A stretch of 64,000 bases of DNA from Actinomycetes bacterium (lineage in GTDB: Bacteria > Actinomycetota > Thermoleophilia > RBG-16-64-13), in contig JAGXFW010000016.1 in NCBI GenBank assembly GCA_024637035.1, positions 1 to 64,000 of the forward strand, given 5' to 3'. Both the position numbers and the translations under genes were made by a program. Under the pieces are notes generated by a model that saw nothing but the letters and a program-made list of their open reading frames with translations, made no database searches and was not told the origin of the DNA. Positions 1 through 63,360 of this stretch are shown here, piece after piece. Numbering within the stretch: the first letter of the stretch is position 1; each line of letters starts with the position of its first letter.

Positions 1-1064
<1,064 letters not shown>

Positions 1065-1134
1065 GAACATCATTATTGCCACTATGTAGATTTGAAGGTG
1101 CATACGGAGCGTAAACCGACACTGCATCCGAGGT

Positions 1135-1252
<118 letters not shown>

Positions 1253-57943: not shown

Positions 57944-58330
57944 GTGAATCCCAAGAACCTCAAGTACCACAAGGAGCACGATTGGGCCCGTATCGAGGGT
58001 GACGTTGCCGTACTCGGTGTAACCGACTACGCTCAGGAGGCCCTCGGCGACATCGTCTACATCGAGCTTCCCGAGGTAGGCACGGAGGTCTCCGCAGGTA
58101 GCACGTATGCCGAGATAGAGTCGGTGAAGGCGGTGTCCGACGTCTACGCTCCGCTGAGCGGCACGATCGTCGAGACCAACGAAGAAGTCGTAGATGCTCC
58201 CGAATTGATCAACGAGAGCCCCTACGAAGACGGGTGGCTCATCAAGGTCAAGTTGAGCGACCCGGCCGAACTCGACGAACTCATGTCGGCCGAGGAATAC
58301 GATCAGGCTCTCGCAGAGCTTGACGAGTGA
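57944..58330 (+). CDS. gcvH: Glycine cleavage system H protein
   Basis: GcvH carries aminomethyl-lipoate between glycine cleavage enzymes. GTG 57944 has AAAGGAGCG just upstream; 128 residues. The lipoyl Lys is K62 in EIESVKAVSDV, inside a hybrid-motif fold with GVTDYAQEALGDIVYIELP near 25-43. No gcvT or gcvP is nearby; in mycobacteria gcvH also sits apart, next to garA and a MerR gene, the same order found here. Confidence 0.95.
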   Translation: MNPKNLKYHKEHDWARIEGDVAVLGVTDYAQEALGDIVYIELPEVGTEVSAGSTYAEIESVKAVSDVYAPLSGTIVETNEEVVDAPELINESPYEDGWLIKVKLSDPAELDELMSAEEYDQALAELDE

Positions 58331-58470: not shown

Positions 58471-58749
58471 ATGAACGACTACGATACCTCATCTTTCGAA
58501 CTGCTCATCGACATACAGTCGAAGGGCGACGAAGAGATCAAGCTCCTTGCCGAGCACTTGGCGGAAGAGGAGCGAGAGGTCTCGAAGACGCGCCGCATCA
58601 TCCACGCAAAACTCGACATCTTGCGTGCTGAGATGGTCCGTCGCCTGCGAGACAAGCATTCGAGCGGCGAGAGCCTCTTTGGTGAAGGGGACGTCGAGAA
58701 ACTCAGCGGCATCCTCAGTTCCCGTGGGCTCGCTGACGAAGAACTCTGA
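58471..58749 (+). CDS. RsiG-like small coiled-coil protein (candidate c-di-GMP-binding anti-sigma)
   Basis: A 92-residue, mostly helical protein. The helix at about 26-62 carries E34-xxx-S38-xx-R41-xxx-H45-xxx-D49, matching the actinobacterial RsiG signature E(x3)S(x2)R(x3)Q(x3)D with Gln replaced by His. The preceding and following residues (EEEREVS, LDILRAEMVRRLRDK) also look like the family. In Streptomyces RsiG binds c-di-GMP and holds WhiG; short one-motif forms work as homodimers in deep-branching actinobacteria. Here only one motif is present. ATG 58471 is predicted to be at or next to the 5' mRNA end. It lies between gcvH and a garA-like gene. The sigma partner is unknown; none is adjacent. 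Confidence 0.72.
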   Translation: MNDYDTSSFELLIDIQSKGDEEIKLLAEHLAEEEREVSKTRRIIHAKLDILRAEMVRRLRDKHSSGESLFGEGDVEKLSGILSSRGLADEEL

Positions 58750-58764: not shown

Positions 58765-59055
58765 ATGGGGGATAGGATCGCACGGGTTGTGAAGGGCATG
58801 GAGCAACTGTTCCACGAGCTCTCGGTGGGCGTCCGCGAGGAGAGGATCCTCCGCTACATCGTGACGGAGTTGAGCAAAGGTCGGAGCTTCGACCAAGTGA
58901 TGATCGACCCGTACGTCATCAACAACACCGATTCGGCGGACCGCACCCACATGCTTGAGAATCCGGAGGTGCTGCGTGGTATCGAGGATCAGATGGCAGC
59001 GGAGTTCTCGGACTACGAACGCCAACTGGCCCAAGTGAACGAAGGTGATGCATGA
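58765..59055 (+). CDS. Unknown 96-residue conserved-looking protein
   Basis: ATG 58765 has GGAGG seven bases upstream. The product is soluble and mostly helical (VKGMEQLFHELSVGVREERI, then a VTELSKGRSFDQVMIDPYV segment with a DPYVINN motif near 49-55, and an acidic tail). I do not recognise a family. Its position, 15 bases after the RsiG-like gene and overlapping the FHA gene by four bases (ATGA), suggests a shared transcript with both. No membrane segment or metal motif is seen. Confidence 0.7.
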   Translation: MGDRIARVVKGMEQLFHELSVGVREERILRYIVTELSKGRSFDQVMIDPYVINNTDSADRTHMLENPEVLRGIEDQMAAEFSDYERQLAQVNEGDA

Positions 59056-59519
59056 CCGCGTGCGCGAAGTGTTCTTTCGAGAACAGCGCGGACGCCAATT
59101 TCTGTAGCCGTTGTGGTAGCCGACTGATCATCACCGACCTCGCCGAGACTACTGTCACCTATGCGCCGCTCGAAGGGGACGAAGCTGGCACCGGTCCTGA
59201 GGCCCCCGGACAGACGAGCCGCTATCCTGTGCTCCTCATCCGGGCGGGGGGAGGGAGCGAGGGTGAGCAGATCGCCCTCGACAGTGATCTGTTGACCATC
59301 GGTCGCAACCCCGAAAGCCACTTGTTCCTCGACGATGTTACTGTCTCTCGCCACCACGCCCGCATCGTGCGCGATGCGACCGGCTACGCGGTCGAGGACC
59401 TGAACAGCCTGAACGGCACCTACGTCAACCGCGGCAGGGTCGAGCGGCAGCACCTCGCCGACGGTGACGAGTTGCAGATTGGAAAGTTCAAGCTGGCGTT
59501 CCTGGAACCGGTCGACTGA
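59052..59519 (+). CDS. FHA domain protein with N-terminal zinc ribbon, GarA/OdhI-like
   Basis: A 155-residue protein. Residues 4-21 hold a CxxC...CxxC zinc ribbon (Cys 4, 7, 18, 21). Then E32-T33-T34-V-T-Y resembles the ETT phospho-acceptor motif before the FHA domain of GarA and OdhI, which in mycobacteria is phosphorylated by Ser/Thr kinases to regulate 2-oxoglutarate metabolism. The FHA domain (about 60-150) is complete, with IGRNPESHLFLDD, VSRHHARI and NSLNGTYVN. GarA itself lacks a zinc ribbon. ATG 59052 overlaps the preceding gene; the stop shares one base with the MerR gene. Confidence 0.85.
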   Translation: MTACAKCSFENSADANFCSRCGSRLIITDLAETTVTYAPLEGDEAGTGPEAPGQTSRYPVLLIRAGGGSEGEQIALDSDLLTIGRNPESHLFLDDVTVSRHHARIVRDATGYAVEDLNSLNGTYVNRGRVERQHLADGDELQIGKFKLAFLEPVD

Positions 59520-60271
59520 TGATGGATCGCTCGCAGCGTCACGAGTCATCGGACGGAGAGGCTGCGGGAGAGGTCGAAGGCCGACCGGGGACCCTCTTGG
59601 CGATCGGCGGAGTCGTCGCGAGCCTCCGCGATGACTTCCCCGACTTGACCATCAGCAAGATCCGCTACTTGGAAGATCGGGGTCTTCTGTCGCCGGAGCG
59701 TACGCCGGGGGGATATCGCAAGTATGGCCCAGTAGCCGTGCGTACGCTGCGTACCATCCTGACTCTTCAGCGGGATGAGTTCCTGCCGCTCGACGTGATC
59801 AAGGAACGACTCCAGCGTGGCACTGCTTCGGCGCTCGGTCGCCCTCTTGCACCGTCGGGGCCTTTCGCTACGGCCCGAGGTCTCAAGCGCGAAGACCTAG
59901 CCTACTCGTGGGAACAGGCAATGAGCATCACCGGCGTTCCTGAGTCATTCCTCCGCGCTCTCGCCGAATTCCATCTTTTCGAGGTCGCCACCCCGATGAC
60001 TGAGACCATGCTCTCTGAATCGGACCTGGAGGTAGTGCGCATCTGCGAGCTCCTGAACCAGCACGGGGTCGAGCCCCGCAATCTGCGTGTTCTCAGTTCC
60101 TCGGCAGAGCGAGAGGCCGCGTTGCTAGCCCAGGTGGTTGCGCCCTCGATGAGATCGGCGAACAAGGACAGAAGGGACGAAGGGGTTCGAGCCCTGGCCG
60201 ATCTCGGTTCGTTGATGGCTCGTCTGCTCGACCTGCTTCTGTACCGTGAGCTTTCGCGGCTTGCCGACTGA
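59519..60271 (+). CDS. MerR family transcriptional regulator (FtsR-like, garA neighbour)
   Basis: A 250-residue protein with an N-terminal MerR winged-helix domain (about 25-100), including LTISKIRYLEDRGLLSPERT and GGYRKYGPVAVRTLRTIL. A helical region with SWEQAMSITGVPESFLRAL follows, and there is no Cys metal-binding site. A MerR gene of this type always follows garA in mycobacteria and corynebacteria; the corynebacterial FtsR activates ftsZ. ATG 59519 shares a base with the FHA stop; ATG 59522 is an alternative. Probable role: regulator of growth or division genes. 39 bases separate it from apt. Confidence 0.86.
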   Translation: MMDRSQRHESSDGEAAGEVEGRPGTLLAIGGVVASLRDDFPDLTISKIRYLEDRGLLSPERTPGGYRKYGPVAVRTLRTILTLQRDEFLPLDVIKERLQRGTASALGRPLAPSGPFATARGLKREDLAYSWEQAMSITGVPESFLRALAEFHLFEVATPMTETMLSESDLEVVRICELLNQHGVEPRNLRVLSSSAEREAALLAQVVAPSMRSANKDRRDEGVRALADLGSLMARLLDLLLYRELSRLAD

Positions 60272-60310: not shown

Positions 60311-60823
60311 ATGGATCTGAGCGCCTTCATCCGCGACGTACCTGACTTTCCGAAAGAGGGCATCATCTTCAAGGACATAATGCCGCTCTTACAGGACCCC
60401 GGGGCGCTTCGCCACACGGTAGACCGGCTTGCCGAGTTCAGTAGAGAGAAGTCTCCCGATCTGATCTTGGGTGCGGAAGCGAGAGGGTTCATCCTGGGTG
60501 CAGCACTTGCCTACGCGGTAGGTGCTGGATTCGCGGCGGCGCGCAAGCCGGGAAAGCTGCCATGGAACGTCGCTCGCGCCGAGTACGAGCTGGAGTACGG
60601 CGTGGATTGCCTAGAGATGCATCTGGACGCGATAGAACCGGGCCAGAGGGTCATCATCCATGACGATCTTCTCGCCACCGGAGGAACCGCGAGAGCCAAG
60701 ATCGAACTGGTGGAGAAGGCTGGCGGGATAGTGGCCGGCCTGGCCTTCGTGATCGAATTGGAGTTCCTCAAAGGTCGCGACCGGCTCAAGGGCTACGACG
60801 TCTTCAGTTTGATCCGCTACTGA
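60311..60823 (+). CDS. apt: Adenine phosphoribosyltransferase
   Basis: Apt salvages adenine with PRPP to AMP, complementing the purine phosphorolysis by the fusion at 31.5 kb. The 170 residues carry [20 protein letters not shown] at the N-terminus, [16 protein letters not shown] near 54-69, and the PRPP motif [17 protein letters not shown] near 114-130. ATG 60311 follows GAGGAG. No relA/spoT gene follows, unlike the arrangement in many actinobacteria. A terminator-like hairpin starts five bases after the stop. Confidence 0.95.
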
Positions 60824-61253: not shown

Positions 61254-62081
61254 TTAGAAGACCCGCTTGCTCAGGATCGCCCTGAGTCTGCCCAGGGCCT
61301 TGACGTGCTCACGCGACACAGCGCGCTGCGTGAGGCCGATCTCATCTGCCACTTCTTGCTGCGTCAGATCGCGGAAGAACAACAGGTAGATGATCTTCTT
61401 CTGGAGTTCGGAGAGCACGGCCAGCGCTTCGTACAAGACGATGCGGTCTTCTATCGGCAGCGAGAACGATTCAGCTCGGATCGATCGAACCAAGGCCTTG
61501 TCGGGCACACGTTCGTCGGACTCGTCAAGGGGCTCGTCCAACGAATGGACGTTGAGGTGTGCCTGCACCCTGATGATCTCCAGGAGACCCTTCTCCTGGA
61601 TGTTGACGAGTTCTGCGAGTTCCGAGATTGTCGGGGAACGGCCGTGCTCCCGGAAGAACTCAGCTTGTGATTCCACGATCTGCGAGTACAGACCTCGCGC
61701 CCACCGCGGTTGTCGCACGAGCATTGAATCTCGGAGGTGATGCCGGATCTCACCGTCGACGATAGCGATCGCGTAGGTAGCGAAGGTTGTGCCGCGAGTG
61801 TCGTCGAATCTGTGGATCGCCTTCATGAAGCCGAGGCGCGCCACTTGGAAAAGGTCTTCGTAGGGTTCCGATGAATAGGAGAACCGCTTCAGAACATGAT
61901 GTAGGAGTGGCGCGTTCTTCTCGAGAAGGTGGTCGAGTGCGGTCAAGTCTCCACGCCGGTACGCCGCCAACACGATCTCATTGGTCGAGAACGAACGTTC
62001 CGGAGTGCCGGCGGGCCGTGTCTTCCCTTCCGGCCCATCCGGGGCTCCAGAAGAACTCGCTGTATGCGTATCGTTTCCCAT
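61254..62081 (-). CDS. RNA polymerase sigma factor, SigB/SigF (group 3) type
   Basis: A 275-residue sigma-70 family protein. Region 2 (about 45-118) has EDLFQVARLGFMKAIHRFD and GEIRHHLRD at 110-118, the latter typical of SigB/SigF/SigG sigma factors. Region 3 (about 130-200) and region 4 (QEVADEIGLTQRAVSREHVK near 240-259) follow. ATG 62081 is preferred; a TTG at 62099 would add six residues. No rsbV/rsbW-type anti-sigma gene is adjacent. The gene lies downstream of pilC on the same strand, separated by a hairpin, so it may share a transcript or be attenuated. It could drive envelope, stress or pilus genes. Confidence 0.9.
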   Translation of the reverse strand: MGNDTHTASSSGAPDGPEGKTRPAGTPERSFSTNEIVLAAYRRGDLTALDHLLEKNAPLLHHVLKRFSYSSEPYEDLFQVARLGFMKAIHRFDDTRGTTFATYAIAIVDGEIRHHLRDSMLVRQPRWARGLYSQIVESQAEFFREHGRSPTISELAELVNIQEKGLLEIIRVQAHLNVHSLDEPLDESDERVPDKALVRSIRAESFSLPIEDRIVLYEALAVLSELQKKIIYLLFFRDLTQQEVADEIGLTQRAVSREHVKALGRLRAILSKRVF

Positions 62082-62145: not shown

Positions 62146-63360
62146 TTACTCGACCAGCTGGAACAGGTTGAAGATCGGGAGGTACATCGAGACGACCACA
62201 AGGCCGACGATACTCCCAATGAAGATCATCATGATCGGCTCGATGATCGACGTGAGCGACTTCACCGCGGAATCCACCTCGTCTTCGTAGAAGTCGGCGA
62301 TCTTGTGAAGCATGGTGTCGAGGGCGCCCGTTTCTTCCCCGATGGCGATCATCTGGGTGACCATCGGCGGAAACACCTTCACCTTCTCAAGAGGTCGCGA
62401 GATCGAATCACCGCTCTTGATGTTCTCCCTCACGGCTTCCATAGCGTACTCGATGACCGTGTTGCCTGAGGTCTTTCCGGTGATGTCGATGGCTTGCAGG
62501 ATCGGTACACCGGAGCTCACCAGGGTCGCCAGCGTGCGGCTGAAGCGCGAAACGGCGATCTTCTGGACAATGGGCCCCAACTTCATAGGTAGACGAAGCT
62601 TGATCTTGTCCCAAGTCTCGGTGCCTTGCTTCGTATTCTTGAGCCTCTTGGCACCGTAGAACAGTAGGAAGAGCGCCGGGAAGACAATGAACCAGAAGGA
62701 GCGCAGGAAGTCGCTTGCCCCCACCATGATCCTGGTGAGCAACGGCAATTGCCCGCCCAATCCATCGTACATCCCAGCGAACACCGGTATCACGAACAGG
62801 ATGAGGCCGAATAGCACAAGGATCGCAAAGACGAAGATCAGGATCGGGTAGGTCATGGCTGACTTGACCGATCTTCGGAGACTGTCGTCTTTCTCGAGCT
62901 GGGTCGCCAGGCGTTCGAGGGTCAAATCGAGCACGCCGCCGATCTCGCCGGCCCGGACCATGCTGACGTAGAGCCTGTCGAACGCGATCGGGTGCTTCTC
63001 GAAGGAGTCGGAGAGGGGCATACCTGCCTCGACATCCATGCGAACGGCCTGGATGATCTTCTTGAGGCGTGGGTTCTCGGTCTGCTCCTCCAGGATGTAG
63101 AGCGCCCGGAGCAACGCCAGCCCCGCGTTGATCATCGTGGCGAACTGACGAGAGAAGATGACCTTGTCGCGGAGCTTGACACTCGTCATCCCCTCGAGCA
63201 GTTCGCCGATGTTGGGCAGCCCCTTCTTCTCCTCGAGGGACATCACGGTAAGGCCGCGCCGTCGGAGTTCAGCCGCCACCGAGGCCTTTGACACCCCTTG
63301 TATCTCGCCGCCCATAATGTTGCCGCCCGACGGCTTGGCTGTGTATGTGAAGTTGGCCAT
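62146..63360 (-). CDS. pilC: Type IV pilus inner-membrane platform protein PilC
   Basis: PilC is the membrane platform for pilin extraction. The 404 residues have two GspF domains (about 70-195 and 270-395), each with FSRQFATMINAGLALL- or FSRTLATLVSSGVPIL-type segments, and three membrane helices near 172-193, 218-240 and 376-400. The N-terminal ~65 residues (MANFTYTAKPSGGNIMGGEI) are typical. ATG 63360 has AAGGAAGG upstream. The order pilT-pilC on the minus strand suggests pilB upstream, outside the window. Confidence 0.94.
   Translation of the reverse strand: MANFTYTAKPSGGNIMGGEIQGVSKASVAAELRRRGLTVMSLEEKKGLPNIGELLEGMTSVKLRDKVIFSRQFATMINAGLALLRALYILEEQTENPRLKKIIQAVRMDVEAGMPLSDSFEKHPIAFDRLYVSMVRAGEIGGVLDLTLERLATQLEKDDSLRRSVKSAMTYPILIFVFAILVLFGLILFVIPVFAGMYDGLGGQLPLLTRIMVGASDFLRSFWFIVFPALFLLFYGAKRLKNTKQGTETWDKIKLRLPMKLGPIVQKIAVSRFSRTLATLVSSGVPILQAIDITGKTSGNTVIEYAMEAVRENIKSGDSISRPLEKVKVFPPMVTQMIAIGEETGALDTMLHKIADFYEDEVDSAVKSLTSIIEPIMMIFIGSIVGLVVVSMYLPIFNLFQLVE

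What the first reader, a model, noticed from the sequence alone, without database searches (positions are those of the whole stretch)
58471..58749. RsiG-like c-di-GMP signature protein inside the gcvH-garA-merR neighbourhood
Seen: E34, S38, R41, H45 and D49 with spacing x3, x2, x3, x3 in a helix, i.e. the RsiG motif with Gln changed to His, in a 92-residue protein with a single motif copy. Established: RsiG of Streptomyces uses two copies of E(x3)S(x2)R(x3)Q(x3)D to bind c-di-GMP and restrain WhiG; one-copy forms act as homodimers. Inference: this organism has an RsiG-type c-di-GMP switch, but its sigma target is not adjacent. The only sigma factor in the window is SigB/SigF-type and lies beside pilC, so the switch may regulate pili. 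His at the Gln position could change ligand contact.
Basis: partly seen in the sequence, partly recalled or inferred. Interest (0 to 1): 0.78.

Follow-up and report, generated by a model that had tools for sequence, protein, structure and literature searches.

The report
c-di-GMP anti-sigma controlling type IV pili
The small gene is a genuine RsiG, a protein that holds back the sigma factor WhiG when the signal molecule c-di-GMP is high; WhiG lies elsewhere in this genome and a WhiG-type promoter sits in front of the pilin genes, here and in several relatives followed by a second, RNA-based c-di-GMP sensor, so pilus production appears to be locked twice by the same signal.

Summary
The 92-aa protein at 58471-58749 is a single-motif RsiG (Pfam PF22802, 49.1 bits vs cut-off 27; matches to solved RsiG proteins). 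His at the Gln position is common, and a His-bearing RsiG binds c-di-GMP (PMC8325347), so it is no novelty. The proposed sigma partner is wrong: the SigF-like sigma at 61254-62081 lacks the WhiG residues that touch c-di-GMP, and the genome carries one canonical WhiG about 130 kb away. In 75 class genomes RsiG and WhiG agree in presence or absence in 72, and all 9 WhiG-lacking genomes lack PilM. The pilus guess holds by another route: a WhiG-type promoter lies upstream of pilA in 13 of 15 family genomes (a 14th scan hit looks unrelated; shuffles give 0.4). In six of the 13, this genome included, a c-di-GMP-I riboswitch match lies between promoter and pilA (two of the six below cut-off), usually with a terminator that reads as an OFF switch. 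RsiG is a new member of a known kind. The stacked control of pilA, and RsiG domains fused to unrelated proteins in related genomes, are the new parts. Nothing was tested at the bench.

The parts
58471..58749 (+). rsiG, single-motif anti-sigma factor, 92 aa
   Evidence: PF22802 49.1 bits vs cut-off 27; PDB RsiG matches; AlphaFold helices
58570..58617 (+). c-di-GMP motif E34-x3-S38-x2-R41-x3-H45-x3-D49
   Evidence: translation; E, S, R, H invariant and D nearly invariant in alignment
58765..59055 (+). co-oriented helical protein of unknown function (96 aa), between rsiG and the FHA gene in families f1 and f6, in one frame with rsiG in G004
   Evidence: synteny; G004 joint ORF; no Pfam; AlphaFold pLDDT 68, no significant fold match
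59052..59519 (+). zinc-ribbon + FHA domain protein (GarA/OdhI-like)
   Evidence: PF00498; OdhI model below cut-off; beside rsiG in all 27 loci compared
59519..60271 (+). ftsR, MerR-type regulator
   Evidence: NF050798 189.7 bits vs cut-off 150; syntenic
60311..60823 (+). apt, adenine phosphoribosyltransferase, next gene of the conserved block
   Evidence: PRK02304 models over cut-off; syntenic in most loci compared
57944..58330 (+). gcvH upstream of rsiG
   Evidence: PF01597 165.3 bits
61254..62081 (-). SigF-like sigma factor, directly after pilC on the same strand; rejected as RsiG partner
   Evidence: TIGR02980 182.7 bits, below its cut-off; HHVLKR in place of K-x3-G-R
62146..63360 (-). pilC
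   Evidence: PF00482 236 bits
63414..64000 (-). pilT-like ATPase, continues beyond the window; MshEN-bearing pilB follows at contig 64552-66330
   Evidence: PF00437; pilB also PF05157
6995..7756 (+). prepilin peptidase
   Evidence: PF06750, PF01478
8014..10372 (+). pilM-pilN-pilO; no WhiG-type promoter oriented into it
   Evidence: PF11104, PF05137 and PF04350; promoter scan

Best explanation
The gene encodes a single-motif RsiG that forms an antiparallel homodimer, binds two c-di-GMP molecules through E34/S38/R41/H45/D49 of each subunit, and in that state sequesters the genome's one WhiG sigma factor (contig C33:189.3-190.2 kb). When c-di-GMP falls, WhiG is released and transcribes pilin genes from TAAA/TCAA-N15/16-GCCGATA promoters: pilA (box at C33:138242, - strand) and a divergent pilin-like ORF (box at C33:139429, + strand). 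In this genome the pilA leader also holds a c-di-GMP-I riboswitch match whose predicted expression platform terminates transcription when ligand is bound, so c-di-GMP would shut pilA at initiation and again at elongation. Shown here by computation: RsiG identity, the single WhiG, co-occurrence, promoter footprint, riboswitch match, alternative pairing. Inferred from homologues: homodimer, c-di-GMP binding, WhiG sequestration, direction of both switches.
For: RsiG identity. Single WhiG: one FliA/WhiG hit over cut-off in the genome (269.7 bits); 303 bits to S. venezuelae WhiG 6pfj; PLVK-x3-GR found by pattern in 27 of 30 WhiG orthologues, the residues PMC8325347 reports as touching c-di-GMP. Co-occurrence in 75 genomes: RsiG+WhiG+ 64, RsiG-WhiG- 8, discordant 3 (Fisher 2e-8, not phylogeny-corrected); PilM absent in all 9 WhiG-lacking genomes. 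Promoter: scan hits at 2 mismatches or fewer upstream of pilA in 14 of 15 family genomes, of which 13 share the TAAAG/TCAAG-N-GCCGA form; shuffles mean 0.42, maximum 3 of 15; 8 of 314 control windows from non-pilin loci. In 19 kb around this genome's pilins the only two hits lie before pilA and before the divergent pilin-like ORF. Riboswitch RF03167: 59.7 bits vs cut-off 59 here; found in 10 of 20 pilA loci, seven at or over the cut-off; 9 of 10 leaders carry GGTTTGCC, complementary to aptamer GGCAAACC, within a terminator hairpin of -16.6 to -24.8 kcal/mol. No flagellin, which argues against a flagellar output.
Against: No biochemical test. This genome's two pilin boxes carry 2 mismatches each, and the genome-wide pattern count does not exceed its reversed control (29 vs 39), so the promoter case rests on conservation. 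pilB and pilMNO carry no oriented box. G010 and G014 have the riboswitch but not the shared box. The riboswitch score here is marginal, and GEMM-I riboswitches of Geobacter bind cGAMP (PMC8835794). G006 and G400 have WhiG and PilM but no detected RsiG; G256 has RsiG without WhiG. Orthologues are not independent, so p-values are optimistic.
Confidence: 0.8

Rival explanations
1. RsiG restrains the SigF-like sigma encoded beside pilC.
For: That sigma follows pilB-pilT-pilC on the same strand and lies beside pilC in several relatives.
Against: Below the FliA/WhiG cut-off; lacks K-x3-G-R (HHVLKR) in the orthologues compared; not found beside rsiG-apt in L075 or L077 although RsiG is kept; a canonical WhiG exists.
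Confidence: 0.06
2. The RsiG-WhiG pair is intact but its main output is not pili, and the pilin boxes are a minor part of the regulon.
For: Nine genomes keep RsiG and WhiG without a detected PilM; pilB and pilMNO have no box; the whole regulon was not mapped.
Against: The pilA box is conserved across the family, and WhiG absence always goes with PilM absence in this sample.
Confidence: 0.2
3. The protein has lost c-di-GMP sensing and is a constitutive WhiG anti-sigma or a relic.
For: His in place of Gln in the motif.
Against: All five motif positions are kept, and His is binding-competent in Conexibacter (PMC8325347); the same-genus copy is 91% identical.
Confidence: 0.04

Closest known systems
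Single-motif RsiG of Rubrobacter radiotolerans and of Thermoleophilia such as Conexibacter woesei (PMC8325347; PDB 7lq2-7lq4)
   Same: Size, one E3S2R3[Q/H]3D motif, WhiG in the genome, link to type IV pili
   Different: Here the link is a conserved pilA promoter plus, in some genomes, a leader riboswitch match; neither the riboswitch nor the rsiG-FHA-ftsR block appears in the parts of that paper I read (1-5 of 9)
Twin-motif RsiG of Streptomyces venezuelae (PDB 6pfj)
   Same: Same family and motif; WhiG partner
   Different: Two motifs in one chain, monomer, sporulation output
c-di-GMP-I-GGC riboswitch (RF03167)
   Same: Aptamer match in the pilA leader of this genome, just over the curated cut-off
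   Different: Ligand untested; here it lies downstream of a WhiG-type promoter
odhI/garA-ftsR cluster of Actinobacteria (PMC6683498)
   Same: FHA gene directly upstream of ftsR
   Different: Here rsiG lies upstream of the FHA gene and apt follows ftsR

Membership tests
RsiG (PF22802) | Profile score over the curated cut-off | tested here: met
   49.1 vs 27 bits
RsiG (PF22802) | E(x3)S(x2)R(x3)[Q/H](x3)D motif in a helix | tested here: met
   conserved; inside predicted helix 20-64
RsiG (PF22802) | Single-motif form with N- and C-terminal extensions around one long helix | tested here: met
   one motif in 92 aa; helices 3-16, 20-64, 74-83. Foldseek returned no RsiG hit, so the fold is not independent proof
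RsiG (PF22802) | WhiG present in the same genome | tested here: met
   one over cut-off; co-occurrence
RsiG (PF22802) | Homodimer, c-di-GMP binding, WhiG sequestration | not testable with these tools
   needs purified proteins
FliA/WhiG sigma (TIGR02479), C33:189.3-190.2 kb | Profile score over cut-off and K-x3-G-R contacts | tested here: met
   269.7 vs 189.6 bits; SPLVKYVAGR in the translation
SigB/SigF/SigG sigma (TIGR02980), 61254-62081 | Profile score over cut-off | tested here: not met
   182.7 vs 234.35 bits; related, not filed as a member
c-di-GMP-I-GGC riboswitch (RF03167), C33:138028-138102 | Covariance score over the gathering cut-off | tested here: met
   59.7 vs 59, marginal
c-di-GMP-I-GGC riboswitch (RF03167), C33:138028-138102 | Ligand is c-di-GMP | not testable with these tools
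   needs in-line probing or a binding assay

The most novel reading that the evidence does not exclude
RsiG's motif helix is a portable c-di-GMP input domain in this class: besides the anti-sigma it occurs fused to an AMP-binding acyl-CoA ligase (L063), to Clp_N domains (L171, L172) and, degenerate, to an HATPase_c_2 domain (L173), and as compact two-motif hairpins; and in the window's own family one signal controls pilA through two stacked sensors, protein and RNA.
Probability: 0.4. Interest if true: 0.75.

Novelty: new member of a known kind. Interest (0 to 1): 0.5.

Why it matters
It places an RsiG-WhiG switch in a lineage where its output can be read from promoters conserved across a family, and proposes that one second messenger acts on pilA at two steps, transcription initiation and leader termination. 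Both steps can be tested directly with purified parts or in a reporter strain.

Tried and rejected
Genome-wide WhiG consensus search: not enriched over its control; its one 1-mismatch hit lies inside an ORF. Flagellar output: no flagellin. SigF-like sigma as partner: rejected. WhiG boxes at pilB and pilMNO: none oriented into those operons. Foldseek of the RsiG and 96-aa models: no significant match. L183 as a complete OFF-switch leader: the aptamer scores 64 bits but no terminator and no GGTTTGCC were found. L179 aptamer: 49.7 bits, below cut-off. Literature search for a c-di-GMP riboswitch with pili in Rubrobacter/Actinobacteria: no paper held all terms.

Full report
What is there. The ORF at 58471-58749 encodes 92 aa with the motif at the stated residues. 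It scores 49.1 bits against Pfam RsiG (cut-off 27) and matches the solved RsiG proteins. A homologue is found in 38 of 41 genomes of the first search and in 240 of 396 sampled genomes of the phylum. Record titles of close relatives (Thermoleophilia, Gaiellales) place the genome in or near Thermoleophilia; the genome handles themselves are unnamed.

Neighbourhood. rsiG, the FHA gene and ftsR lie together in all 27 loci compared, including a Coriobacteriia record (L080) and two twin-motif loci; apt was found in most of them. A 96-aa protein lies between rsiG and the FHA gene in families f1 and f6; in G004 the two share one frame.

Partner. Fourteen region-2 sigma hits occur in the genome; one passes the FliA/WhiG cut-off. 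It lies beside a recombinase gene and dprA on one side and rpsB on the other. The SigF-like sigma in the window does not fit WhiG. RsiG and WhiG agree in 72 of 75 genomes; five of the eight double absences are one genus, g23, so independent losses are fewer.

Output. The pilin cluster lies at C33:133-143 kb. Upstream of pilA the scan at 2 mismatches or fewer finds a box in 14 of 15 family genomes. Thirteen share the TAAAG/TCAAG-N-GCCGA form; the L188 match has ACCCATAA as its -10 and looks unrelated, and L184 has none. Shuffles give a mean of 0.42 and a maximum of 3 of 15; control windows from other loci of the same family give 8 of 314.

Leader. RF03167 was found in 10 of the 20 pilA loci searched, seven at or over the cut-off. 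Six family genomes carry both the shared box and an aptamer match downstream of it: L177 (this genome), L178, L179, L181, L183 and L187; L178 (57.9) and L179 (49.7) are below the cut-off of 59. L184 and L188 carry the aptamer without the shared box. L194 (58.7, below cut-off) and L195 belong to another family and have a weaker box-like match upstream. In 9 of the 10 leaders GGTTTGCC, complementary to the aptamer arm GGCAAACC, lies in the 5' part of a terminator hairpin; L183 has neither. That arrangement predicts termination with ligand bound; direction is inferred, not shown. Boxes lie farther from the pilin motif where an aptamer is present (-338 to -376) than where none was found (-129 to -263).

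Limits. Everything is computation on assemblies, and the statistics treat orthologues as independent. Of PMC8325347 I read parts 1-5 of 9; of PMC6683498, PMC12452182 and PMC8835794 only search passages, and of PMC13232838 only the outline and abstract.

Noticed in passing
L063 (G020:C7:51000-58000), match at G020:C7:54556-54810 -: 761-aa open frame: AMP-binding acyl-CoA ligase (acetoacetyl-CoA synthetase-like) with a C-terminal tail holding two complete RsiG motifs; PF22802 33.8 bits vs cut-off 27. Seen in one genome.
   Followed up: partly
L171 (G321:C7:32001-38166) and L172 (G321:C43:3001-12000): Two Clp_N-domain proteins with a C-terminal RsiG domain, PF22802 54.3 and 53.8 bits. The motif is complete in L171; in L172 the Q/H position is Arg.
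   Followed up: partly
L173 (G293:C149:1-8000): HATPase_c_2 protein with a C-terminal RsiG-like stretch, 26.4 bits, just below the cut-off of 27, motif Asp replaced.
   Followed up: partly
L161, L163-L170, L175 (family f4 genomes): Compact ORFs with two RsiG-type helices in a hairpin. Both motifs are complete in L161, L164, L165, L168, L169, L170 and L175; one is altered in L163, L166 and L167. Three were scored with Pfam: two over the cut-off, one at 26.7 just under it.
   Followed up: partly
L061 (G020:C2) and L062 (G030:C78): Twin-motif RsiG at the same rsiG-FHA-ftsR locus within the class; L061 scores 114 bits. Bears on when the intragenic duplication occurred; no tree was made.
   Followed up: no
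window 58765-59055: 96-aa helical protein of unknown function beside rsiG; weak model, no significant fold match.
   Followed up: partly
L041:4552-6330 (contig C33:64552-66330): PilB with an MshEN domain (63.4 bits), a possible third c-di-GMP input; ligand residues not checked.
   Followed up: no
L041:15507-15659: 6S RNA match, 69.4 bits.
   Followed up: no
window 1-1252: 3' part of a 23S rRNA gene followed by 5S rRNA at the contig start.
   Followed up: no
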